Below the pieces are notes generated by a model, which was not told the origin of the DNA, did not search any database, and saw only the letters and a list, made by a program, of their open reading frames with translations. 64,000 nucleotides of DNA from Anaerocolumna sedimenticola (GTDB lineage: Bacteria > Bacillota > Clostridia > Lachnospirales > Lachnospiraceae), in the NCBI RefSeq assembly GCF_009931695.1, contig NZ_CP048000.1:866501-930500 (forward strand). The letters are read 5' to 3'. A program made the position numbers and the translations under genes. Shown here one piece after another: positions 5,924 to 57,972 of this stretch; the first letter of the stretch is position 1, and every line of letters starts with the position of its first letter.

Positions 5924-6697
5924 TTATATTTTACCTACTGAATTAGCTGCAAGATCCAAAGTACCGTCTACGGTCTGAATCACTTTTTGATTTGCTTCAT
6001 AAGCTCTAGTGACAGCGATCATATCAACCATCTCGGAAACAACATTTACATTGGACTGTTCGGTATATCCTTGTCTGATTTTAGATGTCCCTGTTGTTTC
6101 ATTCGCTCCCTCAAGAGCTACATACATACTGTCACCTTGTTTCTGCAGGTAGTTATAATCCTCAAAATCAGTCGTTATGACTTTATCAATATAAACACCA
6201 TCTGCATATACGGAACCATCTGCATCGATTGTTACATTCGCTGTATTAACCGGAATTGCAAGCTCTCCGCTCTCACCTACCAAAGTATTACCATTAGCAT
6301 CCACCAGTTTTCCATCCTGGTTCATGGTAAAGGAACCATCCCTGGTATATTTAATGACTTCATTTCCATCCTTATCTTTCGTGGAAATATTAAAAAATCC
6401 TTTTCCTTCGATTGCCAGGTCATATGGGTTGCCGGTTTGTCTGAAAGAGCCTTGTCCATAATTAGTATAAACTTCACCCAACTTCACTCCAAGGCTCATT
6501 TTACCTATCGCTTTGTCATTATATTGTTCGGACGAATCTTTGATTTTTAGGGTTAATAAATTATCAAAAGACTGATTGGTAACATTATCTTTTTTATAAC
6601 CAATCGTCGCTGCATTAGCAAGGTTATTAGATATAATATCCAGTCTTTTTTGTTCATTAGCCATTCCTGTCCATGCCGTATACAGACCTCTTACCAT
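5924..6697 (-). CDS. flgF: Flagellar basal-body rod protein FlgF/FlhO-like
   Basis: 257 residues, ATG behind GGAGATAGGAG. It has the rod-protein N-motif (LYTAWTGMANEQ, SNNLANAATIGYKK), the central domain (GQGSFRQTGNPYDLAIEGKG) and the C-motif NVVSEMVDMIAVTRAYEANQ. It is a paralogue of the next gene. FlgF and FlgG-type proteins build the proximal and distal rod. The order mbl, this gene, flgG suggests it is the equivalent of Bacillus FlhO. Confidence 0.9.
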   Translation of the reverse strand: MVRGLYTAWTGMANEQKRLDIISNNLANAATIGYKKDNVTNQSFDNLLTLKIKDSSEQYNDKAIGKMSLGVKLGEVYTNYGQGSFRQTGNPYDLAIEGKGFFNISTKDKDGNEVIKYTRDGSFTMNQDGKLVDANGNTLVGESGELAIPVNTANVTIDADGSVYADGVYIDKVITTDFEDYNYLQKQGDSMYVALEGANETTGTSKIRQGYTEQSNVNVVSEMVDMIAVTRAYEANQKVIQTVDGTLDLAANSVGKI

Positions 6698-42957: not shown

Positions 42958-43116
42958 TTAGTAGACCTGGTTGTATTTTGATTTATGAAGGTATTTTTCT
43001 TTTGTGGCTAAACCTCCTCTTATATGCCTTTCAGATTTGTTGAGGTCCAAAACGACTCTGGCTCTGTTGGCAAGGGATGGATTAATCTGTCCAAGACGTT
43101 CCGTAACGTCTTTATG
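42958..43116 (-). CDS. spoIIID: spoIIID, 3' part (codons 38-89 of the split gene)
   Basis: This frame has no start codon or ribosome binding site of its own but encodes the C-terminal half of a canonical SpoIIID: HKDVTERLGQINPSLA, VVLDLNKSERHIRGGLAT, then a basic tail to TAA at 42958. Joined to the 5' part at 55126-55239 across the shared TACATA core, it gives one 89-codon frame with the HTH and C-terminal basic region intact. SpoIIID is a mother-cell DNA-binding protein that tunes sigma-E genes and helps turn on sigK. The two parts are 12,012 bp apart on the same strand. The break is at the same point in both, so this is an insertion and not decay. Confidence 0.92.
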   Translation of the reverse strand, partial: HKDVTERLGQINPSLANRARVVLDLNKSERHIRGGLATKEKYLHKSKYNQVY

Positions 43117-43140
43117 TATAGATGTTACGAAAACGAAAGT
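43090..43140. other. Attachment site at the spoIIID 3' side
   Basis: Core TATGTA at 43113-43118 with central TG at 43115-43116. The inner arm 43117-43140, as its complement, agrees with the inner arm at 55103-55126 at 18 of 24 positions when the ends are paired. The innermost matching block is ACATCT/AGATGT. Confidence 0.82.
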
Positions 43141-43196
43141 AATTTTTAAAATTATTCATGAAATTCTTTCTTACAAGCTTTTTAAAGCTTTCAAGC

Positions 43197-44444
43197 TTAA
43201 CCATGCAGCTTATCCTGGTATATGATATCCCAATTCATATCGGTGCATACCTGAATACAGATGTCAACAATCTCAGGGTCATAATAGGTACCGGAATACT
43301 TCTTTATTTCTTCCAAGGCATAGGTTATGCCTAAAGCAGGTTTATACGGCCTGTGAGCTGTGATTGCTTCTACAACATCAGCTACCGAGATAATTTTTGC
43401 TTCCAAAAGTATATCTTTTCCAAAAAGTCCGTTTGGATAACCCGTACCGTCTACCTTTTCATGATGCTGTAAAACAATATCCGCAACCGGCCAGGGAAAC
43501 CCTATTTTACTTAAAATTTCATAAGCTATTGCCACATGTGTTTTAATTAATTCAAATTCCGCATCGGTTAATTTATCCGGTTTTGCTAAAATCTCCGCCG
43601 GTATTCCAATTTTGCCTATGTCATGCAGCATTGCCGCTACATATAACCCTTCAAAACGTTCTCTTTCCAATTTAATTTTAGTGGCGATCCGGCATGCTAA
43701 ATAAGCAACTCTTCGCTGATGTCTTGCGGTATAAGTATCCCTTTTTTCTACCAATAATCCCAGGGCTGTAACCGTATTCATAAAATTCTTTTTTTCAACC
43801 GGTGTAATTTTCAGTTTTCTGAAGCTTTCTTCTTTATTAATTCTTTGCTGTAATTCCCACAGGTTAAACTTAAGCTCGTTATTAACTGCTACCAGTTTAT
43901 CATAGGATATTTTCATCTCAGCATAATTATCCAGAAGTTTATGACCTATTTCATGCCCTTTCATCTGCCTGGAGAGGAAATCGCTTATTAAATGAATATT
44001 CCGTTCTATAAAATCAATTAATTTATTAAAATCTTTACTATTTAATTGTAAAACACCGGATTTCCCATACTCTGATGATTCCGTTGCTTCTGACACATTA
44101 TTATATGTTTTTTCCTCTTTAATATCACATAAAAATATATTAGCGATAACGGAATCAATTATGTATACCGGTATCCTAAACATGTTTAAACCACAAATAC
44201 AACTGATTTCCCTTTCACTTTGTAAACAGGTATCGTTGTTTTTCCAGTATTCCTTTAAACATAAATTTTGAAACTCCTGATAATTACACCCAATATTGGA
44301 ACAGGCAGACATCCAGCCGGCGCTATCTATAACTTCTCCGTTTATGTTAACAATTGATATTGGTACATGAGTAAACTTATAAAAATCATGTATTAATTCT
44401 TCCAACAAATTATTACCAATCAGTTCCTTGATATTATATGACAT
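43197..44444 (-). CDS. HD-GYP domain protein with N-terminal PocR-like sensor
   Basis: 415 residues from the ATG at 44444, eight bases after GGGGG; an in-frame TTG at 44462 is less likely. The first 120 residues have the Cys-containing sensory fold of PocR-type domains (ISIVNINGEVIDSAGW; NIGCNYQEFQNLCLKEYW; ISCICGLNMFRIPVYI). A coiled region follows, then a complete HD-GYP domain with AAMLHDIGKIGIP, LQHHEKVDGTGYPNGL and DVVEAITAHRPYKPA. HD-GYP enzymes usually degrade cyclic di-GMP. It is the gene closest to the recombination end and its function in the element is unknown. Confidence 0.88.
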   Translation of the reverse strand: MSYNIKELIGNNLLEELIHDFYKFTHVPISIVNINGEVIDSAGWMSACSNIGCNYQEFQNLCLKEYWKNNDTCLQSEREISCICGLNMFRIPVYIIDSVIANIFLCDIKEEKTYNNVSEATESSEYGKSGVLQLNSKDFNKLIDFIERNIHLISDFLSRQMKGHEIGHKLLDNYAEMKISYDKLVAVNNELKFNLWELQQRINKEESFRKLKITPVEKKNFMNTVTALGLLVEKRDTYTARHQRRVAYLACRIATKIKLERERFEGLYVAAMLHDIGKIGIPAEILAKPDKLTDAEFELIKTHVAIAYEILSKIGFPWPVADIVLQHHEKVDGTGYPNGLFGKDILLEAKIISVADVVEAITAHRPYKPALGITYALEEIKKYSGTYYDPEIVDICIQVCTDMNWDIIYQDKLHG

Positions 44445-44674
44445 TCTTATAACCCCCGACAAAATTGTTATCAGACAATAGAGAAAATGAAGTTCTATTT
44501 TCTATTGAAACAAACCCTCCCACGGTTTACGTTATGGAAATTACCAGTATAACTTTAATAATTTCTACAACTTATATACAATTCTGTAATATTTTTGCTT
44601 TTTAGACAAATTATACCATTATTCTAACTCTATAATCAAGTTATATCAGTAAAAATGCATAAAAAAAGTTAAAA

Positions 44675-44701
44675 CACTATCACCTAAGAAATATGATAGT
44701 G
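44675..44701 (-). terminator. Terminator of the recombinase gene
   Basis: Stem CACTATCA/TGATAGTG on the minus strand, then TTTTAACTTTTTTT, 16 bases past the recombinase stop. Confidence 0.82.
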
Positions 44702-44716
44702 CTTTAAAGCTAAAAC

Positions 44717-46213
44717 TTATGGATCTTTTTCTTTCATATCCGAATATACCCCCAGGTATATATCAATATTCCCATTTATATCTACCTCAATCCTATCCAA
44801 TAAATTTCTAAGTAATAAAACGGAAGCAGCATTACTATCCTTAAATAGCTCCTCAAGATATAAGGGCAATTCAAGATTACAGGCAGGCGGGTTATAAATC
44901 TTTCTAATTTCCTGCACTGTCTGCCGGCACTCTTTTATTTTTTCATAAATGGAATTTATCTTATTTTTTAGCTCTTCCATGGTCAAAATATCATTGGCGT
45001 ACATCTCCATGTATTTTTGTTTTTCTCTGTTAAGTTTATTAATTCTTGCCGCATTTTCTTTTTCTTTATCCGAAAACCTCTCTTTTCTTTTTAATTTCTT
45101 ATTATATTCTTTTAAGAAATTCCGGCAGGTTTCAGGATTATTTTTTAATATGGTAATAAAGTAGCTTTTTATGGAATCCAATAATTTTATTTCATCTATG
45201 GAAGTTGTATTACTGCAGAAGTTGGTACCATTGCTGTTACGTCCATTGCATACCCAGGTTACATATGTATTTTTATAGGTTCTCACCAATCTGCGAAAAG
45301 TTGATCCGCAGCATTTGCATTTCACTAACTGACTTAATATATATCTACTGGAACCGGTATCTTTGGGGAATGCGTTCATACGTTTATTCCGGATCTGCTT
45401 TGCCTTTATAAAGACGGCATCGGATATAATTCTCAAATCAGGATTCGCTATAATCATCCATTGACTTTCATTCCTGCTTTTTCGCTTACCGGTTAAGAAG
45501 TCTTCAATTTCCTGTTTTCCGTTTATTACTTTCCCCACATAAATTTCATTGGACAGAATACGGTTCACCGCGTTTTGGGTCCAGGAGCAGTTTCTCTTTG
45601 TACGAATTCCCTCCTGGTTTAAAATAGAAGCGATACGGTTTGTCCCCAGGTTTTTATTGGTATATAGGTCATATATCCGGCTTACTACGGCTGCTTCTTC
45701 CTGGTTTATATTAAGATGAAAATAATCACCGGGAATCTTATCATATCCATAGATTAAGTTTGGCACCCGTCCATGTTCGGCATTCTGTTTTTTACCAAAG
45801 CGGACACGTTTTGAAGTGTTGGCACTCTCCTCCTGGGCTATTGCGCTTAACATCGTTAACATAAATTCAGAGCTGTCCGAGGAAGTCTGATCATAATTTA
45901 CAAATATGACCCGTATATTGAGGGCTTTCAATTTTCTTATACTTGTCAAAAAATCAACCGTATTTCTTGCCAGCCTGGATATATCCTTAATCAGGACTAT
46001 TTCAAACTTTCCCAAACCGGCATCGGCTAACAGTTTTAATAATTGGGTGCGGTTTTTTATTTTGGTACCGCTTTTCCCTTCATCCGCATAAATATTAACT
46101 AATTCATATGCATTTCTCGCGGCATATTCGGCAAAGAAATTCTGCTGACTCTCCAGACTGTCCAGTTGTTCATCCTTATTTGTAGATACTCTGCAATAAG
46201 CCACCGCTTTCAT
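44717..46213 (-). CDS. Large serine recombinase (skin-element type)
   Basis: 498 residues from the ATG at 46213, behind AAGGAAAGGAG. The N-terminal resolvase domain has the catalytic serine in YCRVSTNKDEQ (residue 10) and the arginines of DISRLARN near residue 65. The recombinase domain, the zinc ribbon (CKCCG ... C ... FCSN) and a coiled-coil region typical of large serine integrases follow. The family includes SpoIVCA, which excises the skin element of Bacillus. All catalytic residues seen are intact. The gene once started at 46429 (see the findings): a MITE now separates that start from the rest. It should act on the att sites at 43113 and 55125. Confidence 0.93.
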   Translation of the reverse strand: MKAVAYCRVSTNKDEQLDSLESQQNFFAEYAARNAYELVNIYADEGKSGTKIKNRTQLLKLLADAGLGKFEIVLIKDISRLARNTVDFLTSIRKLKALNIRVIFVNYDQTSSDSSEFMLTMLSAIAQEESANTSKRVRFGKKQNAEHGRVPNLIYGYDKIPGDYFHLNINQEEAAVVSRIYDLYTNKNLGTNRIASILNQEGIRTKRNCSWTQNAVNRILSNEIYVGKVINGKQEIEDFLTGKRKSRNESQWMIIANPDLRIISDAVFIKAKQIRNKRMNAFPKDTGSSRYILSQLVKCKCCGSTFRRLVRTYKNTYVTWVCNGRNSNGTNFCSNTTSIDEIKLLDSIKSYFITILKNNPETCRNFLKEYNKKLKRKERFSDKEKENAARINKLNREKQKYMEMYANDILTMEELKNKINSIYEKIKECRQTVQEIRKIYNPPACNLELPLYLEELFKDSNAASVLLLRNLLDRIEVDINGNIDIYLGVYSDMKEKDP

Positions 46214-46243
46214 TGATTGTCTCCTTTCCTTGGTACTTATTGG

Positions 46244-46393
46244 CAGGTAATTGCGAAACGCCGGCATTGCATCAATATACCATGCAATTGATGCAATTTC
46301 AGTGCTGAATTTTGCCTATCAGGCAACTGAAGCTCTGAAATTATATCAATTGTATGGTATATTAAGTAAGTTATATAGTTTCGCAATTATCTG
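46244..46393. mobile_element. MITE-like element, family R1, copy 2 (in the recombinase 5' end)
   Basis: 150 bp with ends CAGGTAATTGCGAAAC and GTTTCGCAATTATCTG. Long imperfect inner palindromes are present (CAATTGATGCAATTTCAG / CTGAAATTATATCAATTG). Flanking direct repeats are GTACTTATTGG (46233-46243) and GTACTTATTAGG (46394-46405). It lies between the small gene's stop codon, which overlaps the old recombinase start, and the present start at 46213. Confidence 0.86.
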
Positions 46394-46425
46394 GTACTTA
46401 TTAGGCTTTTTGCCTCTCTCGTATC

Positions 46426-46614
46426 TCATTCCGGTTCCTCCAAAGTATGAAGTATTAATCTGGCTAAAAATTCCGCCGTATCCAATTCTGAGTTTGGATT
46501 GTGAAAAGTTATCTGTAATTCAGCGTTTTTATTTTTCTTCCTTTTTGCTTGTCTTTCTTTTTTATGTTCCGGGTCATTCCGAATATTAAGTTGATATTGT
46601 TTCTGTAATTCCAT
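46426..46614 (-). CDS. Small recombinase-associated protein
   Basis: 62 residues from the ATG at 46614 (an in-frame TTG at 46626 is possible). The first half is basic and Lys/Glu-rich; the second half reads ITFHNPNSELDTAEFLARLI. Small proteins with a HNPNT-x-D/E-TA-x-x-x-ARxL motif are often encoded just before large serine recombinases in Firmicute elements, and this gene's TGA overlaps the ATG of the ancestral recombinase. It could be a helper or directionality factor; that is inference. The ribosome binding site is weak. Confidence 0.6.
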   Translation of the reverse strand: MELQKQYQLNIRNDPEHKKERQAKRKKNKNAELQITFHNPNSELDTAEFLARLILHTLEEPE

Positions 46615-46640
46615 TTTTTCTGCCAATTTGCATTTTTTAC

Positions 46641-46669
46641 ATATTATGATTGTATTATTTTAGATATGC
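46641..46669 (-). promoter_or_regulatory. Candidate sigma-E promoter of the recombinase operon
   Basis: Minus strand GCATAT (46664-46669), a 15-base spacer and CATAATAT (46641-46648), against the sigma-E pattern ATATT / CATACAAT. The -10 box matches 6 of 8 positions. It is suitably placed to drive the small gene and the recombinase in the mother cell. Confidence 0.5.
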
Positions 46670-46708
46670 TTGTTTTAATATGAAATCTTAAGGCAGTCCA
46701 TGCAAAAA

Positions 46709-46736
46709 AACAGTGCCCGATTCAACAGGCACTGTT
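46709..46736. terminator. Bidirectional terminator after the ABC exporter gene
   Basis: Stem AACAGTGCC/GGCACTGTT with T-runs on both sides. It separates the ABC operon from the recombinase operon. Confidence 0.88.
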
Positions 46737-46820
46737 TTTGATATAGGATTGAGGTACAATTTGAAATTAAAGCTTATATTACCGGTTGCATATAAAATGA
46801 TTTGAGTGTCAAAAACCCTT

Positions 46821-48314
46821 TTAAAATTCTTTTTTGTTAAATATTTTAACAGATAGGTTATAGGATATAAAGACAGCTATCAATACAATAACCGGGAAAG
46901 CAAATCCTAACATTTTTAACTGTTCCATACTGGGTTTTGGTATATTTAAATTATCCAATAATTTAATCAGTCCCACCACCATTAAAAAAGGAACTGCAAA
47001 TACTGCAAACATCATGATTCGTGCCTTTTCCACTCCATATTTAAATAGTAAAGGCAATAAAAAACTAAACATAAAAATTGCTATTAAAGCAATAATACCG
47101 CTAGCTATAAGGTTTTCCATGGGATTTTGGATTTTCATCGCAACTGACATGATAATAGCTGCTATTCCGGATAATATCGTTCCGGACAGTACCGTGAAGA
47201 TTAAAAATACATATTTTGATAATACGATATCTTTTCTTACCAGCGGCATAGTTAAGGCATATTTATCCCATTTTGCAGTCTCATCATAAGACATGGAAGT
47301 TATAACCAACATGGAGGACATCATAACAATCATCCCCACTAAATAAGACGGGCTTTTTAAGTTAATTGCAAAAAAAGCAAAAAGTATTACAGTTAAACCG
47401 ATTTGTTTTACGTATTTTCTTATATTATATAAATCTTTAATAAATAATCCTGCCATAACCCTATTCCCCCTGACTTTAAATAAAATGATTTCTTCAATAG
47501 ACGTACTGTCAATAATTAAGTCGTTCCTAAACCGTTCCAGTTCTTTTTTATTATCAACCATAACCTCATACCCGAACTGACCTTTACGCACCCCTGCTAT
47601 GTGGCTTTTATCCAACTTATCATAATCCTCTTTTCTGCAGCGTACAATTCCGTAATTATAAATCAGGTCATCTTTACTTTTACTGAATACGATTTTGCCT
47701 TCATGGATAAAGGTAATATAATCTGCAATTTTTTCTAAATCACTGATTATATGGGAAGAAATGAGAATGGTATGTTCTTCATTCTGAATAAAATCCAGGA
47801 AAATATCCAGTATCTCATCCCGGACAATAGGATCCAGTCCGCTGGTAGCTTCATCTAATATGAGAAGTTTAGCACCATGGGAAAGTGCTGCGGCGATTGA
47901 CAGCTTCATTTTCATTCCCCTGGAAAATTCTTTAATAATCTTATCTTCCGGCAGCTTTAACCGGTTTGCGTATTTTTTAAAGGTATTTTCCTCCCAATTG
48001 GAATATATCTTACTCATTATCTTAGATATATGTCCCAGGGTCAGGTTATCATGAAAATAGCTTTCGTCAAAAACGACTCCAATCTGTTCTTTTATTTTTC
48101 GTTCATCCTGAATATGGTCCAGACCAAAAACCTTAATATTACCTTCATTTTTATGAATTAGATTTAAAATTAATTTTAAGGTAGTTGTTTTACCTGCTCC
48201 GTTCTCCCCAATGAAACCCATGATACTTCCTCTTGGCACTGAAAATGATATTTTATCTAATTTAAAGTTTTTGTATTGTTTCGTAACACCATCTAATACG
48301 ATTGCATTTTCCAT
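46821..48314 (-). CDS. ABC exporter: ATPase and ABC-2 permease fused in one frame
   Basis: 497 residues. Residues 1-285 are an ABC ATPase with Walker A FIGENGAGKTTT near 34, signature EFSRGMKMKLSIA near 130 and Walker B LLILDEATSGLD near 150. Residues 287-497 are an ABC-2 permease with about six helices, which looks like a separate protein beginning MAGLFIKDLYNIRKY. These are nearly always two genes. At the joint an intact ribosome binding site AGGGGG still stands before the inner ATG (47456), and one extra G in the run at 47466-47470 would end the ATPase at a TAG. So it is probably a recent fusion, a slippage site or a sequence error. Its regulator is the upstream GntR gene. Confidence 0.85.
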   Translation of the reverse strand: MENAIVLDGVTKQYKNFKLDKISFSVPRGSIMGFIGENGAGKTTTLKLILNLIHKNEGNIKVFGLDHIQDERKIKEQIGVVFDESYFHDNLTLGHISKIMSKIYSNWEENTFKKYANRLKLPEDKIIKEFSRGMKMKLSIAAALSHGAKLLILDEATSGLDPIVRDEILDIFLDFIQNEEHTILISSHIISDLEKIADYITFIHEGKIVFSKSKDDLIYNYGIVRCRKEDYDKLDKSHIAGVRKGQFGYEVMVDNKKELERFRNDLIIDSTSIEEIILFKVRGNRVMAGLFIKDLYNIRKYVKQIGLTVILFAFFAINLKSPSYLVGMIVMMSSMLVITSMSYDETAKWDKYALTMPLVRKDIVLSKYVFLIFTVLSGTILSGIAAIIMSVAMKIQNPMENLIASGIIALIAIFMFSFLLPLLFKYGVEKARIMMFAVFAVPFLMVVGLIKLLDNLNIPKPSMEQLKMLGFAFPVIVLIAVFISYNLSVKIFNKKEF

Positions 48315-48340
48315 ATTTTACACCCACCTTATCTCGCAGG

Positions 48341-48496
48341 TTATCCTGCGGTACTGCCACAACGAAAACGGGGCGAATGAATCACCTGGTGGCAACCTTT
48401 CTTAACGATATTTTCTTTCACACTTTTTGCGACATGACTGCCCACGAAAGCCTCAATTGGACATAAAGAATATACGGTATTGCAGTTTATTTTCAC
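48341..48496 (-). CDS. Possible 51-residue Cys-containing small protein
   Basis: A frame from GTG at 48496 to TAA at 48341 fills the gap between the GntR regulator and the ABC gene. It reads like VKINCNTVYSLCPIEAF with further KKGCHQ and RFRCGS. There is no good ribosome binding site, and the protein family is not recognised. It may be chance. Confidence 0.22.
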   Translation of the reverse strand: MKINCNTVYSLCPIEAFVGSHVAKSVKENIVKKGCHQVIHSPRFRCGSTAG

Positions 48497-48538
48497 TCTT
48501 ACATCTCATCCCAAAACCTGTGACGGTACTATTTATTC

Positions 48539-48910
48539 TTACTCATTATAAATCACATCCAATATATCATGTAATTCTTCCAGTTTAATTCCGCTTACCT
48601 TAGCGTTATCCACCGCTTTAAGCAGATATTCTTCAATTACTTTAAGCTGTTCTTCCTTTACCAGCTCGGTATTTGTTTCTGAAACAAAACTTCCTTTTCC
48701 AACCAGAGTGGTAATAAAGCCGTCTCTCTCTAAATCTTCATATGCCCGCTTTGTGGTAATTACACTGATTCTTAATTCCTTAGCAAGCAGTCTCATCGAT
48801 GGCAGGGACTGTCCTGACTTTAATTCTCCGCTTATTATCATATTTTTAATCTGATTGGTAATCTGCTCATAAATCGGTTTACCACTTGAGTTACTGATAA
48901 TGATATCCAC
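48539..48910 (-). CDS. GntR family regulator (YtrA type)
   Basis: 123 residues from GTG at 48910 behind GAGGTGACTG. It has the winged helix of GntR proteins: PIYEQITNQIKNMIISGELK, LRISVITTKRAYEDLERDG and TLVGKGSFVSE. The C-terminal region is short, as in the YtrA subgroup, which usually controls a neighbouring ABC exporter. Here that is the gene at 46821. A perfect operator palindrome lies upstream. Confidence 0.9.
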   Translation of the reverse strand: MDIIISNSSGKPIYEQITNQIKNMIISGELKSGQSLPSMRLLAKELRISVITTKRAYEDLERDGFITTLVGKGSFVSETNTELVKEEQLKVIEEYLLKAVDNAKVSGIKLEELHDILDVIYNE

Positions 48911-48935
48911 CCAGTCACCTCTTTCATGTGTTTAT

Positions 48936-48983
48936 TGTATATACCTTATATATACATAATACTCATAATATACATTTTGTCAA
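48936..48983 (-). promoter_or_regulatory. Promoter and operator of the GntR/ABC operon
   Basis: Minus strand TTGACA (48978-48983), a 16-base spacer and TATTAT (48956-48961). Over the transcript start lies a palindrome with arms TGTATATA and TATATACA around a 5-base centre (48936-48956). This is the expected position for self-repression. The rest of the gap to 49251 has no clear element. Confidence 0.78.
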
Positions 48984-49251
48984 GAATAATTTTGAATTTG
49001 AAAGAAAAAATAAATTTTCTCTTAAATAAAAAGGGTCCTGGCAGGGCCTGTTTTTCTTGTGGCCAATCTATAAAACTACTTTCAAATATTCTGATAATAT
49101 ACTGATTATTTTGCATATTTCAGGTCTTTTTCTGACATTCTAACCCTATAAAATCCCTGATGAAAATTACAGTAAATATTTTTAAAAAAACCTCTTTACA
49201 AAGTCTATTCTTTATGTCAAAATATAAAAAATTATAGGAGGTAACAAATTA

Positions 49252-50622
49252 ATGTCATCAAAAAATCAATCTATCGGCTACTTGCCAGATGAGCGACCCC
49301 CGTTTCTGGAATTGTTCCTATTTGCATTACAGCAAATCGTAGTTATGTTCCCCGCAACGGTTCTGGTAGCACTTATTACAGGTTTCCATGTATCCACTAC
49401 TATTTTTGCCAGTGGTTTGGCAACACTCACTTTCCTTCTTGTTACAGGAAGAAAAATACCATTATATTATGGTTCCAGTTTTTCTTATATTGCAGCTATC
49501 GCATCTATTATGAGTGCTGAAGCATTTTCTAATTACAGTCTTAATGACAAAATCTCTGTTGCTCAATTTGGTATTGTAATGTCCGGTTTCGTTTCTATTT
49601 TCGCCGGTGCCATTATAAGAAAAAGTGGTAAAGCAGCCATCGAAAAAGTCCTTCCCCCAACTGTTACAGGCAGTATAGCTATTATTATTGGTTTATCACT
49701 TGCATCAAATGCAATGACCAACGCAGCAAGCCATCCGGAAGTAGCAGCTGATCAGGCAGGTTTAGCAGGTAACTTAGCTTGGGTTATCGCTCTTATTACC
49801 CTTATTTCCACAATTTTATATTCCGTATACTTAAAAGGTAAGCTGAGTCAGCTGCCTATTCTTTTTGGCCTTTTTACAGGTTATATCGTTGCAGCGATTC
49901 TAGGTGCGGCTACAGGAATTCCTTTTATTAACCTTCATACTGTTGAATCAGCAGGAATTTTCAACTTACCGGTATTCACTTTACCAAAGCCGTCAATGGC
50001 AGCTGTTGCAGCAATTATGCCTATTGCAATTGCAACCATACCGGAATCTACGGCACATGTTTACCAGCTTCATATTTATGTTAATGACCTGGCTAAGAAA
50101 AAAGGCTCCAAACGTTATGATATTGATGATAAGCTTGGACTAAATCTGATCGGTGACGGTATCGGTGATATTGTATCCGGCTTTATCGGTGGTCCTGCAG
50201 GTACAAACTACGGTGAGAACATCAGTACCATGGCATTATCTAAGATCTTCTCCGTTCCTGTATTAATTGCAGCTGCTATCATTACCATGGTTATTTCCTG
50301 CTTTACACCATTAATTAACGCGGTATACTCCATACCTACTGCAGTTATCGGCGGATTATCCATCTACTTATTCGGTATTATCGCTGCTCAGGGTATTACT
50401 ATTATGATGGACAGAAAAGTGGATATGTTTAAATCCAAAAACTTAGCAGTTATCGCGGTTATCTTAATCATCGGCTTAGGCGGCAGTTTCGGTTTTGAAG
50501 GCGGCATGATACCGATGTTTGGAATTCAGTTTCCGGCTATTGCTTCCGCAGCGGTTTTTGGTATTGTTTTAAATCTTCTTCTTTCTTTTGCAGATAAAGA
50601 TATAACCTCTACAGAAGAATAA
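49252..50622 (+). CDS. Uracil/xanthine permease family transporter (NCS2)
   Basis: 456 residues, ATG behind AGGAGGTAACAAATTA; about 12-14 membrane helices. Family segments include FLLVTGRKIPLYYGSSFSYI near residue 60 and IATIPESTAHVY near 265, with GTNYGENISTMALSK typical of uracil permeases. It should import a nucleobase by proton symport. No PyrR-type or purine riboswitch is seen in its leader. It is convergent with the azgA-type gene. Confidence 0.9.
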   Translation: MSSKNQSIGYLPDERPPFLELFLFALQQIVVMFPATVLVALITGFHVSTTIFASGLATLTFLLVTGRKIPLYYGSSFSYIAAIASIMSAEAFSNYSLNDKISVAQFGIVMSGFVSIFAGAIIRKSGKAAIEKVLPPTVTGSIAIIIGLSLASNAMTNAASHPEVAADQAGLAGNLAWVIALITLISTILYSVYLKGKLSQLPILFGLFTGYIVAAILGAATGIPFINLHTVESAGIFNLPVFTLPKPSMAAVAAIMPIAIATIPESTAHVYQLHIYVNDLAKKKGSKRYDIDDKLGLNLIGDGIGDIVSGFIGGPAGTNYGENISTMALSKIFSVPVLIAAAIITMVISCFTPLINAVYSIPTAVIGGLSIYLFGIIAAQGITIMMDRKVDMFKSKNLAVIAVILIIGLGGSFGFEGGMIPMFGIQFPAIASAAVFGIVLNLLLSFADKDITSTEE

Positions 50623-50665
50623 GTAATATAACGAAATGTACGTATTCTAACAGTAAGTAGTAAAA

Positions 50666-50704
50666 AGAAGCAGAGGTGCTTCCTAAAAGGATTCCTCTGC
50701 TTCT
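50666..50704 (+). terminator. Terminator of the uracil permease gene
   Basis: Stem AGAAGCAGAGG/CCTCTGCTTCT followed by TTT, 44 bases after the stop. Confidence 0.88.
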
Positions 50705-50886
50705 TTTATGCATTTAAATAAAGCTTCCTCATTTATTTACATTACTTATAACTTGTTGTTTTAAAACCGCAGCGGGCTTGCTGCTTTGCGGCCGAGTGGT
50801 TATACAGCAATGTCTTCTTTTTACGCGAACCATGTACCATAAGGCCCCGCTATTCATGTGAAAGGGTTACCCTTTCCAAATTAAAA

Positions 50887-50948
50887 ATACTCTACATCCT
50901 AAGGGAAATAATAAGACTTATTATAATTTCCTGTTGAATATAGAGTAT
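50887..50948 (-). terminator. Terminator of the AzgA-type permease gene
   Basis: Outer arms ATACTCTA/TAGAGTAT and inner arms around AATAAG/CTTATT, followed by TTTTTAATTT on the minus strand. The 150 bases between the two convergent terminators (50705-50886) are a GC-richer stretch with small hairpins and no gene. Confidence 0.82.
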
Positions 50949-50983
50949 TAATCTTAATAGAAATTGAAAGCTTAACTAGTTGA

Positions 50984-52402
50984 TTATAATAAAGATAAAA
51001 TAATAAAGTTTAGGATAAACAAACCTGTTGCAACCCAAAGAACCGGATGTATTTCTTTTGCTTTACCTCTGCAGATTTTAACTAAGCAGTAGAATATAAA
51101 TCCGCCTGCAATACCATAAGAAATACTGTAGCAAAATGCCATAAAGATTGCTGCAAAAAATGCAGGAATTGCTTCATCTAAATCTGTCCAGTTAACTTCC
51201 TTAAAGGATGCTAACATCATAATACCAACAGCGATTAAAGCAGGTGCGGTAGCCTGTGCAGGAACGATTCCTACAATAGGAGCAAGGAACATGCTGATAA
51301 GGAATAAAGCGGCTGTAACGACGGAAGTTAAACCAGTACGTCCGCCGGCACCAATACCTGCAGCACTTTCAACATAAGTGGTTGTATTGGAGGTACCAAA
51401 GATAGCACCAATGGAGGTAGCGATAGAGTCGGCAAATAATGCCTTGTCCATCTTGGACTTAAATCCGGAACCGTCCTGAAGTGCTTTTTCATCAGCATCA
51501 TCAAAAATTCCTGTTCTCTTACCTGTTCCGATGAAAGTTCCAAGAGTATCAAATGTATCAGATAAACTAAATGCAAAAATCGTCATTAAAACCAGCGGTA
51601 TTTTAGCTGCATCACTGAATAAGGATAAAAGACCTGCCTTACCAAAAGCTGCACCAAAGGTTGTGCCAAGCTGGGTGAAAGAATCACCTAAACCAGGTGT
51701 TGCACTAAGAGCTGATAAATTTACAACACCCATAGGAATTCCAATAATTGTAGTTGCAGCGATACCGATTAAAATTGCGCCTTTTACTTTTAAAATTAAA
51801 AGTACAAACATAATTAAAATTCCGATTAACGATAAAATAACTGCGGGATTGTTAAACTTTACTAAAGCTGGTACGATACTGCTGTCAGCAACAACGGTAC
51901 CTCCATCTAATACAACATTTTTACCCGGGTCAGAGGTAAACTGAAGAAGTCCTGCATCTTTAATACCAATATAAGCTATAAAGATACCAATTCCGCCGCC
52001 GATGGCATTTTGTACGCTTGCTGGAATTGCTTTAATAATTAATTTACGTATTTTGGTAACGGTAATAAGGATATTGATTAAACCACATAAAAATACCATT
52101 GCCAAAGCCTGCTGCCAGGAAAATCCCAAACCAAAACATACTGTGTAAGTAAAAAATGCATTTAATCCCATACCCGGAGCCTGTGCATATGGCACATTTG
52201 CAAAAAGTCCCATAACCAAGGTACCTGCAACGGATGCTATGATGGTTGCCAGAAATACCGCTCCGCTAGGTATTCCAGTCTGGCTTAACATCTGCGGGTT
52301 AACAAAGATAATGTAGGCCATTGCAAAAAAGGTTGTAATACCGGCAGCTACTTCCGTAGATACTGTAGTGCCACTTTGCTTAAGTTTGAAAAATTTTTCC
52401 AT
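50984..52402 (-). CDS. AzgA family guanine/hypoxanthine permease (NCS2)
   Basis: 472 residues, ATG behind AAAAGGAG; about 12 helices. Signature segments include GITTFFAMAYIIFVNPQML, YAQAPGMGLNAFFTYTVC and SDTFDTLGTFIGTGKRTG. It imports guanine or hypoxanthine/adenine. Found back-to-back with an uracil-type permease inside the element, it extends the cargo's nucleobase-uptake theme. Confidence 0.93.
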   Translation of the reverse strand: MEKFFKLKQSGTTVSTEVAAGITTFFAMAYIIFVNPQMLSQTGIPSGAVFLATIIASVAGTLVMGLFANVPYAQAPGMGLNAFFTYTVCFGLGFSWQQALAMVFLCGLINILITVTKIRKLIIKAIPASVQNAIGGGIGIFIAYIGIKDAGLLQFTSDPGKNVVLDGGTVVADSSIVPALVKFNNPAVILSLIGILIMFVLLILKVKGAILIGIAATTIIGIPMGVVNLSALSATPGLGDSFTQLGTTFGAAFGKAGLLSLFSDAAKIPLVLMTIFAFSLSDTFDTLGTFIGTGKRTGIFDDADEKALQDGSGFKSKMDKALFADSIATSIGAIFGTSNTTTYVESAAGIGAGGRTGLTSVVTAALFLISMFLAPIVGIVPAQATAPALIAVGIMMLASFKEVNWTDLDEAIPAFFAAIFMAFCYSISYGIAGGFIFYCLVKICRGKAKEIHPVLWVATGLFILNFIILSLL

Positions 52403-52638
52403 AACTTTCTCCTTTTAACTTGTTTTATCTTAAGAGTTTTCCTCTTAATTTTAAATAATTGTAATAAATTTTATAAAACCTTAATAACATGGTATATTAT
52501 ACATGATTATTTTTCATATTTAAATAACTTTTTTACAAGGCCTTTATTAAAAAAATAATCAATCACTTATATAATGCTTATATATAAACAAAAAACGTGT
52601 TCCTATTATCAAGATGCACGGCGCAAGGTCAACGCCTT

Positions 52639-52670
52639 TTATGGGAAATTTGAAAAACAATTTCCCATAA
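52639..52670. repeat. 32-bp inverted repeat
   Basis: TTATGGGAAATT/AATTTCCCATAA with an 8-base loop. There is no U-tract, so its role is unclear. It lies between the azgA-type gene and MITE copy 3. The surrounding 52403-52759 has only a possible minus promoter (TTTAAA - 17 - TATAAT near 52488-52516). Confidence 0.7.
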
Positions 52671-52759
52671 GTTTATTATTGCTGATTGTTTTCCGATTAT
52701 TTAAATACTGAAAATTATTTTCAATTTTCTGGAAGTATGGTATACTCAGGATAATATCG

Positions 52760-52910
52760 TTAGGTAATTGCGAAACAGAATTATGGAATCTATATCCTAT
52801 GCACTGATACAATTTCAGAACTGAATCTTGTCCACAGGGCATCTGAAGTTATGAAATTGTATCAATTGTATGGGATATTCGGCAAGCTATATAGTATCGC
52901 AATTACCTAA
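52760..52910. mobile_element. MITE-like element, family R1, copy 3
   Basis: 151 bp with ends TTAGGTAATTGCGAAAC and GTATCGCAATTACCTAA. Flanking direct repeats are GGATAATATCG (52749-52759) and GGGTAATATCG (52911-52921). The interior resembles copy 2 over its whole length (GATACAATTTCAGAACTGAA against GATGCAATTTCAGTGCTGAA). It ends 30 bases before the corA-type start codon. Confidence 0.86.
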
Positions 52911-52940
52911 GGGTAATATCGAGATGAAAGGAAACAAACC

Positions 52941-53876
52941 ATGTATTATCAGATACAAAGCGAAATATCTCCCATAAACCTGCAGGACTATAACCCGGAT
53001 ATCCTGACTTTCGGAATCATTACCCTGGACGAATTGGAAGAGTGTTATGAATGTTTTGGTTTTGCTCTTGCTACCGTTATGGAATGTAAAAATGATACCC
53101 ATGAAATTCATGGTGAGATTGAAGTTTATGATGATTACCATTTTGGCATTATAACCGGAATAGAAACGAAACATTTTATCCGTGTACAGGACCGAATCGG
53201 CATCTATATAAAAAGCAATTTATTTCTGATCGTAGTTATTGAAGACCAGGATGACAGTATGAGAGTGGAATTATTTGAGTCATTAAAACATATCAACCTT
53301 TCAAAAGTAACCTTGGAGCGTTTAATATATGGTTTCCTGGAACGGCTGATTCTCAATAACTATTCCACATTGGAGAAAATCGAAGAAGAGATTAGTAATC
53401 ACGAAGATAAAATTAACGATAACCATCTGGACCGGAATTTCAACTATAAAATAACCGGAATCCGAAAAAGACTGCTTCTCTTAGATAATTTTTATGAACA
53501 ATTAATTGTAATCGGTGAAGAATTGGAAGAAAACGCTATTGATATTTTCAATGCGGATAATCTGAGGTATTTTAAATTATTTACAGACCGGGTTACCCGT
53601 CTTAGCAATAATACCAGAATGCTTCAGGACTACAGCGACCATGTAAGGGACTCTTATCACGCCCAGCTGGATTATAATTTAAATAATATCATGAAGATGT
53701 TCACCGTGGTTACTACCATTTTCCTTCCCCTTACCCTGATTGTAGGCTGGTATGGCATGAATTTTACCTATATGCCTGAGCTGCATTGGAAATATGGTTA
53801 TTTATTCGTAATTGTAATAAGTGTAATTGTTGCTGTTTTATGTATCTTTTATTTTAAAAAGAAGAAATTTTTATAA
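52941..53876 (+). CDS. CorA family divalent-metal transporter
   Basis: 311 residues, ATG after GAAAGGAAAC. A long soluble N-domain with helices is followed by two C-terminal membrane helices. The first one (FTVVTTIFLPLTLIVGWYGM) ends in the pore motif GMN, as YGMNFTYMPE, and the last one is basic at its end. It should conduct Mg2+ or a similar ion as a pentamer. The transcript start may lie within the adjoining MITE. Confidence 0.88.
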   Translation: MYYQIQSEISPINLQDYNPDILTFGIITLDELEECYECFGFALATVMECKNDTHEIHGEIEVYDDYHFGIITGIETKHFIRVQDRIGIYIKSNLFLIVVIEDQDDSMRVELFESLKHINLSKVTLERLIYGFLERLILNNYSTLEKIEEEISNHEDKINDNHLDRNFNYKITGIRKRLLLLDNFYEQLIVIGEELEENAIDIFNADNLRYFKLFTDRVTRLSNNTRMLQDYSDHVRDSYHAQLDYNLNNIMKMFTVVTTIFLPLTLIVGWYGMNFTYMPELHWKYGYLFVIVISVIVAVLCIFYFKKKKFL

Positions 53877-54022
53877 GAGGTACCTAAAATTCATAAACTT
53901 TTATTATTTATGCCCGGATACCAAAAATGCTGGTGTAATGTAAAAAGCGAATTCTTGTAGTTGTGTAAACCTTTTCCGGCTACAAGATTAACAGCTTATT
54001 AATTAAGCACCAGCCTTATTAT

Positions 54023-54277
54023 TTATTTACTATTATCATTATAATTTTCATTTCTTTTTTCCCGGAAAAACTCATCTACGATGAATTCAGCACTTTCGCA
54101 CCACATAAGAGATCCTGTTTTTTGTAATGCTTCATAGACTTTAGACTGGTAGAATTCATAAAGGCAATCGTCAAATGGTTTCTGGGTCTGATCAGCTATT
54201 AAGCGGACTACGTGTTCTATTTTCATAATAATATCCAGCGTAATATCCTGTCCTTTATATATATACCGATTTATCAT
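54023..54277 (-). CDS. Small DUF3791-like protein, third gene of the cassette
   Basis: 84 residues from the ATG at 54277, which overlaps the TGA of the gene before it (ATGA) and follows GGGAGG. The motif KPFDDCLYEFYQSKVYEALQ and the ending ESAEFIVDEFFREKR resemble DUF3791-type small proteins, and resemble the first gene of the cassette. The function is unknown; a partner or antitoxin role for the middle gene is possible. Confidence 0.6.
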   Translation of the reverse strand: MINRYIYKGQDITLDIIMKIEHVVRLIADQTQKPFDDCLYEFYQSKVYEALQKTGSLMWCESAEFIVDEFFREKRNENYNDNSK

Positions 54278-54762
54278 GCTATTGTAATCCTCCCTAGATA
54301 CTCCAGACATTCTAATGCTTTTTTCGTATGTAACGAAACCTGGTCATGAGCTTCATAAGTTCTCAACTGTTCAATTGCCATTTCCTCATTATAAATTCCT
54401 GCTACATATAAAGCCACGGTTCTCATTGTATTATCATTGGCTACCGGGCCAATTACTATATCATAATCGTGTTGTATTCCGCCGCACATCCGGTTATTTT
54501 TAATCATGGTAAGCCACTCTCTGGTTAACCCGCAGAATGTTTTCACTTTTAAGCCGGGACCCGGCTTTAATTTAAACTTCATGACATATCTGCCTTCCCC
54601 TCCATAACGAATGTACATATTCTCAGCCCAATTCGCTGCATAATCCTCCACTGTGGTAGTATAAAACCCTTTACCGAAATCCCGTTTATCCTTAGAATGA
54701 TTCAGATCAACCTGGTCAAATACAACATTGGTGCCATGGAATACAATCCTTTCATCCATCAT
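54274..54762 (-). CDS. DUF3990-like protein, possible ADP-ribosyltransferase fold
   Basis: 162 residues, ATG behind AAGGAGAG and overlapping the upstream gene by 11 bases. The N-terminal FHGTNVVFDQVD, then FGKGFYTTTVEDYAANWAEN resembles the His/Tyr motif layout of ART-fold enzymes as described for DUF3990. No catalytic claim can be made from sequence alone. It is sandwiched between two small acidic genes, a frequent toxin-antitoxin layout. Confidence 0.7.
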   Translation of the reverse strand: MMDERIVFHGTNVVFDQVDLNHSKDKRDFGKGFYTTTVEDYAANWAENMYIRYGGEGRYVMKFKLKPGPGLKVKTFCGLTREWLTMIKNNRMCGGIQHDYDIVIGPVANDNTMRTVALYVAGIYNEEMAIEQLRTYEAHDQVSLHTKKALECLEYLGRITIA

Positions 54763-54982
54763 TTCGCTCTCTCCTTAAAACATCTTCCACAAAATAAATG
54801 CTTTCTTCCAGACTTTGTGTATGCAAAGCCTGATATTGAGAACGAAGTAAAGATATAATACCCTTTTTTGAAAAAAGTTCGTATACCTCTTTTGCTGTTA
54901 ATTTATGATTGTATGCATAACCCTCAATTGCTTCCACAACCATTAAATTCATATCTCTCTCTGCCTGGTTCAAAAACGCCAC
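54752..54982 (-). CDS. Small DUF3791-like protein, first gene of the cassette
   Basis: Up to 76 residues; GTG at 54982 and TTG at 54973 are both possible starts, the latter better spaced from GGAG. It reads as a helical protein with LTAKEVYELFSKKGIISLLR and ending EESIYFVEDVLRRER. It precedes the DUF3990 gene with an overlap, so the pair is translationally coupled. A role as antitoxin is inference from layout. Confidence 0.65.
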   Translation of the reverse strand: MAFLNQAERDMNLMVVEAIEGYAYNHKLTAKEVYELFSKKGIISLLRSQYQALHTQSLEESIYFVEDVLRRERNDG

Positions 54983-55086
54983 TCCAATACATTTCCCTAT
55001 TACATTTATATTAATCTAAAGACAGATAATGAACTTAATTTATAACTTATTGTTAATAATTTTGCTTAGAATAAACAAGAATTTTA

Positions 55087-55239
55087 CTAGATACAGAGAA
55101 AAACGTTCGTATCTGTTACATCTGTATGTACGGTTGATTTCGAAATGCCGAATTGTTTGGCCGTCTGCCTCACGGTTGCATTATTATCAATTATGTAATT
55201 GGCAATTTCTACTGCCCGTTCTTCTATATAGCCTTTCAA
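55087..55239 (-). CDS. spoIIID: spoIIID, 5' part (codons 1-38, then 12 codons of element sequence)
   Basis: Starts at TTG 55239, eight bases after AGGGGG. It opens MKGYIEERAVEIANYIID and contains the HTH GISKSTVH, exactly like a canonical SpoIIID, up to residue 38. The next 12 residues (TDVTDTNVFLCI) come from the element and end at TAG, so the unexcised chromosome would make only a truncated 50-residue product lacking the C-terminal basic region. A sigma-E-like promoter lies upstream. Confidence 0.92.
   Translation of the reverse strand: MKGYIEERAVEIANYIIDNNATVRQTAKQFGISKSTVHTDVTDTNVFLCI
55103..55152. other. Attachment site at the spoIIID 5' side
   Basis: Core TATGTA at 55125-55130, central TG at 55127-55128. 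The inner arm is 55103-55126; the outer arm 55131-55152 is spoIIID coding DNA. See the partner site at 43090-43140. Confidence 0.82.
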
Positions 55240-55270
55240 AAGGATATCCCCCTATTGTACTTGTTTCTAT

Positions 55271-55299
55271 ATTGTATGCGTGAATGCTATAAATTATAT
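55271..55299 (-). promoter_or_regulatory. Candidate sigma-E promoter of spoIIID
   Basis: Minus strand ATATAA (55294-55299), a 15-base spacer and CATACAAT (55271-55278), the latter an exact sigma-E -10 box. The start codon is about 25 bases after the predicted transcript start. spoIIID is a sigma-E gene in Bacillus. Confidence 0.68.
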
Positions 55300-57653: not shown

Positions 57654-57914
57654 TTACATTGCCTCAACAATACTCCGATATTTCTGCCTTGTTGCCAAAC
57701 CGCCGCGAATATGCCTCTCCGACTTATTCGTCATAAGTATTTCATTAACGGCATGGTATAACTGCTTATTGACATAAGGTAAACGGTCTTGCAAATCTTT
57801 ATGAACAGTGGATTTACTGATTCCGTATTTCAGAGCCGTTTCTCTTACAGTCGCTTTCGTCTCAATGGTATAATAAGCCAGCTCGATTATTCTATCTTCA
57901 ATGTATTGCTGCAT
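57654..57914 (-). CDS. SpoIIID-type regulator (intact paralogue)
   Basis: 86 residues from the ATG at 57914 (an in-frame TTG at 57929 is less likely). It opens MQQYIEDRIIELAYYTIETK, with KATVRETALKYGISKSTVHK as its HTH and SERHIRGGLATRQKYR as the C-terminal basic region. It is clearly less similar to canonical SpoIIID than the split gene is. It lies only 2.4 kb from the spoIIID 5' part, so an old duplication is likely. Whether it could stand in for the interrupted gene is unknown. Confidence 0.88.
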   Translation of the reverse strand: MQQYIEDRIIELAYYTIETKATVRETALKYGISKSTVHKDLQDRLPYVNKQLYHAVNEILMTNKSERHIRGGLATRQKYRSIVEAM

Positions 57915-57972
57915 CCTATGGGCCCCCAAGCTTGTTTTTTCTAATATATGCTTGTTTGTCCCATGTTATGTC

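What the first reader, a model, noticed from the sequence alone, without database searches (positions are those of the whole stretch)
42958..55239. spoIIID is split by a 12,012-bp skin-like element carrying its own serine recombinase
Seen: a canonical SpoIIID is in two parts on the same strand, codons 1-38 at 55126-55239 and codons 38-89 at 42958-43116. Both breakpoints contain TACATA. Removing the interval gives an uninterrupted 89-codon frame across KSTVHKDVT. The interval encodes an intact large serine recombinase 1.6 kb from one end. Known: sigK is interrupted in the same way by skin in Bacillus, excised in the mother cell by the serine recombinase SpoIVCA; other sporulation genes have similar intervening elements. 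Inference: this is a programmed, mother-cell-specific excision that rebuilds SpoIIID. I do not know of a described case in spoIIID, but I cannot check the literature.
Basis: partly seen in the sequence, partly recalled or inferred. Interest (0 to 1): 0.97.

Follow-up and report, generated by a model that had tools for sequence, protein, structure and literature searches.

The report
Excisable element splits sporulation gene spoIIID
In this bacterium the gene for the sporulation regulator SpoIIID is cut in two by a 12,012-base element that carries its own DNA recombinase, and because both gene halves are strongly conserved across the genus the element is likely cut out during spore formation to rebuild the gene, a programmed DNA rearrangement that our paper searches did not find described for spoIIID.

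Summary
In detail: codons 1-38 and 38-89 of a canonical spoIIID are separated by exactly 12,012 bp, meet at TACATA and join in frame. The skin-like reading is largely supported. (i) Of 14 Anaerocolumna congeners, 13 have the 5' half and 12 a full 3' half; the halves are under stronger purifying selection (pN/pS 0.013 and 0.061) than an intact paralogue (0.141). (ii) Of 28 other same-family genomes with only partial spoIIID, 20 hold both halves; in all 12 with both on one contig the same recombinase family lies just upstream of the 3' half. (iii) The attP dyad is centred on the CA of the His38 codon in 24 of 26 elements. (iv) Assemblies of three other genomes branch exactly at the core, two of them containing the joined gene. 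(v) A conserved small 'FHNPN' protein upstream of the recombinase is the likely directionality factor. Excision in this species, mother-cell timing and the RDF role are inferred. No report for spoIIID was found in ten full-text searches. New variant of a known kind.

The parts
55126..55239 (-). spoIIID 5' half, codons 1-38 (TTG start); frame runs on 12 codons into the element
   Evidence: identical protein in most congeners
42958..43116 (-). spoIIID 3' half, codons 38-89 and stop; no ATG/GTG/TTG in the 13 in-frame codons upstream
43114..55128 (.). intervening element, 12,012 nt from one His38 codon to the other (exact ends depend on where in TACATA the strands are exchanged)
55100..55150 (-). 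attL; TACATA at 55125-55130
43090..43145 (-). attR; TACATA at 43113-43118
55270..55298 (-). SigE-like promoter of spoIIID (TATAATT, 13 nt, CATACAAT)
   Evidence: -10 CATACAAT in 14 of 14 Anaerocolumna genomes aligned
44717..46267 (-). large serine recombinase; likely start ATG at 46213
   Evidence: Pfam, phrog_95 integrase, orthologues beside split spoIIID
46426..46626 (-). small FHNPN protein, likely start ATG at 46614; candidate recombination directionality factor (inferred)
46641..46669 (-). SigE-like site upstream of the FHNPN gene (GCATATC, 14 nt, CATAATAT)
   Evidence: motif chosen after seeing some sequences
43197..44462 (-). PocR-HD domain protein (cargo)
46821..48910 (-). ABC transporter and GntR-type regulator (cargo)
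49252..52402 (.). two permease-like genes: 49252-50622(+) NCS2-like, 50984-52402(-) without NCBIfam hit (cargo)
52941..53876 (+). CorA-like transporter (cargo)
54023..54982 (-). 95-aa protein, DUF3990 and DUF3791 proteins beside attL (cargo)
57654..57929 (-). intact, diverged SpoIIID paralogue, likely start ATG at 57914; outside the element

Best explanation
The gene spoIIID is cut at codon 38 by a 12,012-bp element that encodes a large serine recombinase, and the element is likely excised precisely during sporulation so that the two conserved halves would be rejoined into one 89-codon gene. Steps: (1) in the genome as sequenced the gene is split [shown]. (2) In the mother cell SigE would transcribe the 5' half and, from a second promoter, the FHNPN gene and the recombinase [promoter-like sites shown, use inferred]. 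(3) The FHNPN protein would act as directionality factor, so that the recombinase joins attL to attR with exchange at the CA of TACATA [dyad centre shown, reaction inferred]. (4) The element leaves as a circle and the rebuilt gene yields SpoIIID, which would then act on later mother-cell genes such as sigK, itself uninterrupted here [sigK shown, the rest inferred from B. subtilis and C. difficile]. (5) The forespore keeps the split copy, so the loss dies with the mother cell [inferred].
For: Purifying selection on both halves: all-pairs pN/pS 0.013 (5' half, 14 genomes) and 0.061 (3' half, 13) against 0.141 for the intact paralogue, though the 3' half has no usual start codon. Split in 13 of 14 congeners for the 5' half, 12 of 14 for a full 3' half. 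Same split without an intact copy in 20 of 28 further same-family genomes with partial matches. Recombinase of one family inside 27 of 27 elements read end to end. attP dyad centred on the same CA in 24 of 26 elements, 15.5 of 23 pairs on average against 6.2 shuffled. Joined and integrated junctions in one MAG, identical over 113 nt; contigs of two more genomes break exactly at the core. Where the recombinase is missing between a 5' half and the gene, the gene has been made whole by a copied 5' half: 5 of 5.
Against: No excision product seen in the window's species. An intact paralogue is present in the window's genome and in 13 of 14 congeners, so rejoining may not be essential there. Of 23 non-Anaerocolumna genomes with partial spoIIID searched for the recombinase, 12 gave no match at E 1e-60: some are broken contigs, some (G120, G176, G215, G390) hold another element type. 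The SigE-like site of the FHNPN gene is found in only 3 of 11 elements outside Anaerocolumna and most single sites are not significant against shuffles. Empty-site strains, not excision, could explain the metagenome case.
Confidence: 0.82

Rival explanations
1. An ordinary mobile element that uses spoIIID as attachment site and excises at random in some cells; rejoining is a by-product and not timed by sporulation.
For: Near-identical recombinases in different genera and families point to mobility. Excised and integrated forms in the yabG case coexist at all time points (PMC10747680, passages). Recombinase promoters outside Anaerocolumna show no clear SigE site.
Against: Fixed in Anaerocolumna with deep vertical divergence of the recombinase; 10 of 10 Anaerocolumna elements tested have the SigE-like site before the FHNPN gene, shuffles 0.9; mother-cell-only need for SpoIIID (recalled) would make random excision costly.
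Confidence: 0.12
2. A static insertion has inactivated this copy, and the intact paralogue at 57654-57929 has taken over.
For: An intact SpoIIID-family gene lies 2.4 kb upstream and has a SigE-like -10.
Against: Split copy is more conserved than the paralogue; paralogue is diverged (44 of 79 identical); 20 same-family genomes with both halves have no full copy. Decayed 5' half copies do occur (G150, G036) and show what neglect looks like.
Confidence: 0.04
3. The halves work as two separate polypeptides, or are joined at RNA or protein level.
For: The 5' half is a 50-codon frame of its own.
Against: No usual start codon for the 3' half; element tails differ between species; recombinase and att dyad accompany the split.
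Confidence: 0.02

Closest known systems
gin element in gerE of Bacillus cereus ATCC10987 (PMC5595907, passages read)
   Same: Small mother-cell regulator gene split; serine recombinase plus small partner (GirC, GirX); element not prophage-like; excised at mid-sporulation
   Different: Another gene, 28.6 kb, three serine recombinases, Bacilli; excision was shown by experiment there
skin in sigK of B. subtilis and C. difficile (PMC5025042, passages read)
   Same: Mother-cell gene rebuilt by a large serine recombinase; in C. difficile with a small RDF, CD1234, under SigE and SpoIIID
   Different: Target is sigK; here sigK is whole and the regulator spoIIID is split; the FHNPN protein was not compared with CD1234
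SPbeta in spsM, vfbin in spoVFB, yin in yabG (named in PMC10747680, passages read)
   Same: Elements in sporulation genes that excise
   Different: Other genes, prophage or prophage-like elements; yin known from one strain, the spoIIID split from many genera
SCC recombinase CcrB and fdxN-element recombinase XisF (NCBIfam)
   Same: Closest named recombinase models (146 and 111 bits); XisF acts in a developmental excision (recalled)
   Different: Far below those families' cut-offs of 900 and 375 bits: not members

Membership tests
Sporulation gene-intervening elements (skin, gin, vfbin, SPbeta, yin) | Element interrupts a sporulation gene and its removal restores the frame | tested here: met
Sporulation gene-intervening elements (skin, gin, vfbin, SPbeta, yin) | Element encodes a serine recombinase | tested here: met
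Sporulation gene-intervening elements (skin, gin, vfbin, SPbeta, yin) | Short direct repeat at both ends with inverted-repeat arms (att sites) | tested here: met
   TACATA at both ends; window dyad 17 of 23 pairs, shuffled mean 6.2
Sporulation gene-intervening elements (skin, gin, vfbin, SPbeta, yin) | Directionality factor needed for excision | tested here: inconclusive
   conserved small protein found, function untested
Sporulation gene-intervening elements (skin, gin, vfbin, SPbeta, yin) | Excision occurs in sporulation and gives a joined gene and a circle | not testable with these tools
   only indirect: joined and split forms in assemblies of other genomes
Sporulation gene-intervening elements (skin, gin, vfbin, SPbeta, yin) | Mother-cell (SigE) control | tested here: inconclusive
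   SigE-like sites
Large serine recombinases | Resolvase, Recombinase and zinc-ribbon domains in one protein of about 500 residues | tested here: met
Canonical SpoIIID | Full-length similarity of the joined product to SpoIIID | tested here: met
Prophage | Phage structural or lysis genes in the element | tested here: not met
   none among 9 element proteins scanned with Pfam or 5 with PHROGs apart from the integrase; not every small ORF was scanned
CcrB or XisF recombinases | Score above the curated cut-off | tested here: not met

The most novel reading that the evidence does not exclude
spoIIID is the home of a Clostridia-wide family of developmental DNA elements: the codons of its KSTVH-KDVTER stretch serve as attB for one clade of large serine recombinases with a dedicated FHNPN directionality factor, so that in many spore formers SpoIIID, the regulator acting before sigK, can be made only after an irreversible DNA rearrangement in the dying mother cell. 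Lineages leave this state by copying the 5' half back beside the 3' half and losing the recombinase, while Anaerocolumna has kept it for the life of the genus and has a second, diverged, uninterrupted SpoIIID.
Probability: 0.6. Interest if true: 0.92.

Novelty: new variant of a known kind. Interest (0 to 1): 0.88.

Why it matters
It would add spoIIID, a mother-cell regulator that acts before sigK, to the few genes known to be rebuilt by programmed DNA excision, and shows the arrangement fixed in one genus and scattered over many genera of Clostridia. It makes testable why sporulation cascades acquire DNA-level switches, would explain spoIIID genes that annotation calls missing or broken, and offers a recombinase with candidate directionality factor and defined att sites.

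Tried and rejected
Assembly artefact: rejected, the split recurs in single-contig genomes G007, G008, G009, G010, G014 and G276. Dead copy with paralogue take-over: disfavoured by selection. Phage origin of the window's element: no phage gene in the proteins scanned. IMG/VR with the window's recombinase: no relative; with a blended query: three contigs. In the phage collection 458 records matched, all under 60% identity; of these I opened two.

Literature: ten full-text searches listed no paper whose title or abstract reports an interrupted spoIIID. I read passages, not whole texts, of PMC3416734, PMC3533761, PMC5595907, PMC10747680, PMC5025042, PMC12888040 and PMC10294663; none of those passages reports it. 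A 2022 sporulation gene-set paper (10.1128/jb.00079-22, recalled) is not held. Most subscription journals are outside the library.

Rows dropped or set apart: G159 (contig break in a whole gene) and G396 (another 5' part) are among the 28 but not counted as split; recombinase fragments G006 and G044a fell out of the tree. No structure prediction and no search of the large protein database was made. No SpoIIID tree was built, so the origin of the paralogue is open.
Full report
OBSERVATION. From His38 codon to His38 codon the interval is 12,012 nt. The joined protein matches B. subtilis SpoIIID over residues 1-80. The recombinase is an intact large serine recombinase.

HOST. The genome is one contig of 5,500,435 bp. 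Its genus is Anaerocolumna: G007 and G010 have the lengths of Anaerocolumna sp. MB42-C2 and AGMB13025, and the G002 contig that of A. aminovalerica DSM 1283. The species of the window is not told. sigK (307 bits) and spoIVA (658 bits) are each found in one uninterrupted frame.

GENUS-WIDE AND CONSTRAINED. Of 14 congeners searched, 13 have the 5' half and the intact paralogue and 12 a full 3' half. G001 (63% complete) has neither but has the recombinase; in G003 (63%) the 3' half breaks off at about codon 57. In the 11 Anaerocolumna with both ends on one contig the element is 4,846 to 27,003 nt long. Over all pairs pN/pS is 0.013 for the 5' half (14 genomes), 0.061 for the 3' half (13) and 0.141 for the paralogue (14). 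Between the window's genome and G007, G006 and G010 the 3' half shows 6, 11 and 11 synonymous and no other changes. Its frame opens 13 codons before His38 with no ATG, GTG or TTG. Such conservation is hard to explain unless the halves are translated as one.

ELSEWHERE. Of 397 same-family genomes 247 had a SpoIIID match. From the summary I picked the 28 outside Anaerocolumna whose best match was as weak as a half gene (E 1e-16 to 1e-23) and searched them again: none has a full-length match; 20 have both halves, 7 one half, 1 (G159) is a contig break in a whole gene. Twelve have both halves on one contig, and all 12 have a recombinase of this family, 42-51% identical, ending within 200 nt of the 3' half. 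Among 391 genomes of the class, 280 with a match, 15 picked likewise were searched again: 8 have both halves, 4 on one contig. Recombinases lie beside the 3' half in G490, G502, G730, G723, G740, G670 and G501, and beside the 5' half in the other orientation in G575, where the interval is 64.7 kb. Caproiciproducens galactitolivorans, Acetanaerobacterium elongatum and two Oscillospiraceae MAGs also carry recombinase and 3' half side by side.

CO-OCCURRENCE, BOTH WAYS. In one search (39 genomes, E 1e-60) the recombinase was found in 5 of 5 Anaerocolumna, in 11 of 23 others with partial spoIIID, and in 1 of 11 with a whole gene (G433, on another contig). The 12 partial ones without it are G017, G066, G120, G137, G167, G176, G215, G244, G300, G390, G396 and G401: many are cut by contig ends, four hold another element type. 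So the tight link holds for elements read end to end, not for every partial match. G227 resembles Anaerocolumna: a diverged whole copy plus a 3' half behind the recombinase.

THE ELEMENT. I read 27 elements end to end (26 between halves on one contig, and G011's own contig). The recombinase is in 26 by clustering and in G490 by tblastn. Other cargo varies: a permease-like gene in 12, CorA in 10, DUF3791 and DUF3990 in 8 each, ABC in 8, GntR in 7, HD protein in 6. A small protein with the motif FHNPN lies upstream of the recombinase on the same strand: HMM hits in 23 of 27 (two weak; 15 seeds, 9 of them from these 27), two more by eye (G014, G099), none in G490 and G502 whose recombinases are most distant. 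It is mostly within 300 nt of the recombinase but about 6 kb away in G041 and G436. The smallest element (G099, 3.5 kb) holds just a permease-like gene, such a small ORF and the recombinase. Hence the small protein is my candidate directionality factor; nothing tests it.

ATT SITES. Joining element ends in silico gives arms whose symmetry is best centred on the CA of the His38 codon in 24 of 26 elements (not G041, G377), on average 15.5 of 23 pairs against 6.2 (sd 2.1) in shuffled sequence.

SIGNS OF EXCISION. (a) G443, an Oscillospiraceae MAG: contig C62 holds the joined gene up to the contig's end; contig C32 holds recombinase and 3' half; they share exactly the 113 nt from the core TACATC on. 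The exact 5'-half pattern occurs once in the bin, in C62, so an element-free strain is not excluded; C62 and the related G442 contig are alike only over the gene. (b) G011, Anaerocolumna: three contigs end exactly at the core; the 5' flank ends TACATAAAG, the whole 7,042-bp element begins and ends with it, the 3' flank begins with it. A 9-bp repeat should not break an assembly; coexisting junctions would. (c) G463: the 5'-half contig stops exactly at TACATA and its last 127 nt are the first 127 of a contig with the joined gene, as at a fork in an assembly graph. In G130 a contig also ends at the core. Raw reads were not available, and no circle junction was found in these genomes.

REPAIRED GENES. 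I re-searched 48 genomes, most but not all of those with two or more matches. In G416, G155, G352, G344 and G265 a 5' half followed by the element's left arm stands 4.0-7.2 kb before a whole gene whose first 38 codons copy it (97-114 of 114 nt identical), with no recombinase of this family between. Recombinase in 27 of 27 split and 0 of 5 repaired loci gives Fisher p 5e-6, but these sets were met in the work, not drawn at random.

TIMING. The 5' half has CATACAAT at the -10 place in 14 of 14 aligned genomes. Before the FHNPN gene an ATAT-like box, 13-15 nt and CATA occur in 10 of 10 Anaerocolumna tested (shuffled mean 0.9) and in 3 of 11 others; I chose this pattern after seeing some of the sequences, and singly most sites do not beat shuffles. 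Mother-cell control is thus an inference, in line with C. difficile, where the RDF gene is under SigE and SpoIIID (PMC5025042, passages).

HISTORY. In a quick tree of 42 recombinases the 14 Anaerocolumna rows lie on one side of a branch (support 71) with deep splits, while other genera and families share close pairs such as G266 and G730: long residence in one genus, movement elsewhere. G120, G176 and G215 have other recombinases (22-27% identity) at the gene, and with G390 a different end, joined near codon 40.

KNOWN OR NEW. Interrupted sporulation genes named in the passages read are sigK, spsM, spoVFB, gerE and yabG. Ten searches found none for spoIIID. The kind is known; target, recombinase and candidate RDF, breadth and repaired forms appear new as far as I could search.

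Noticed in passing
L181-L185 (G416, G344, G352, G155, G265): Elements at the spoIIID site without the recombinase, in which the gene is whole because its first 38 codons are duplicated.
   Followed up: partly
L118, L120, L130, L124 (G176, G120, G215, G390): A second kind of element end, near codon 40 of spoIIID; in the first three with serine recombinases only 22-27% identical to the window's.
   Followed up: partly
L178-L180, about 6490-6560: Three IMG/VR contigs carry a relative of the recombinase followed by an unbroken attP-like dyad (19 of 23 pairs); free form or insertion elsewhere is not settled.
   Followed up: partly
L176 (MT838016.1): A record filed as bacteriophage from human faeces holds recombinase and spoIIID 3' half side by side and so looks bacterial.
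   Followed up: partly
window 55105-55125 and 43119-43140: The att arms contain GTAACA, like the putative SpoIIID motif TGTAACAAT quoted for C. difficile (PMC5025042); SpoIIID might bind the att sites. Untested.
   Followed up: no
L110 (G150), L058 (G036): Extra 5' halves that have decayed, natural controls for loss of selection.
   Followed up: no
L060 (G003 contig C140, 560-655): A 3' half that breaks off at about codon 57 in an incomplete MAG.
   Followed up: no
L161, L162 (G575): A 64.7-kb interval in spoIIID with the recombinase beside the 5' half in the opposite orientation; size suggests a prophage.
   Followed up: no
window 54023-54982: DUF3791, DUF3990 and 95-aa genes beside attL, kept in 8 of 27 elements; role unknown.
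   Followed up: no
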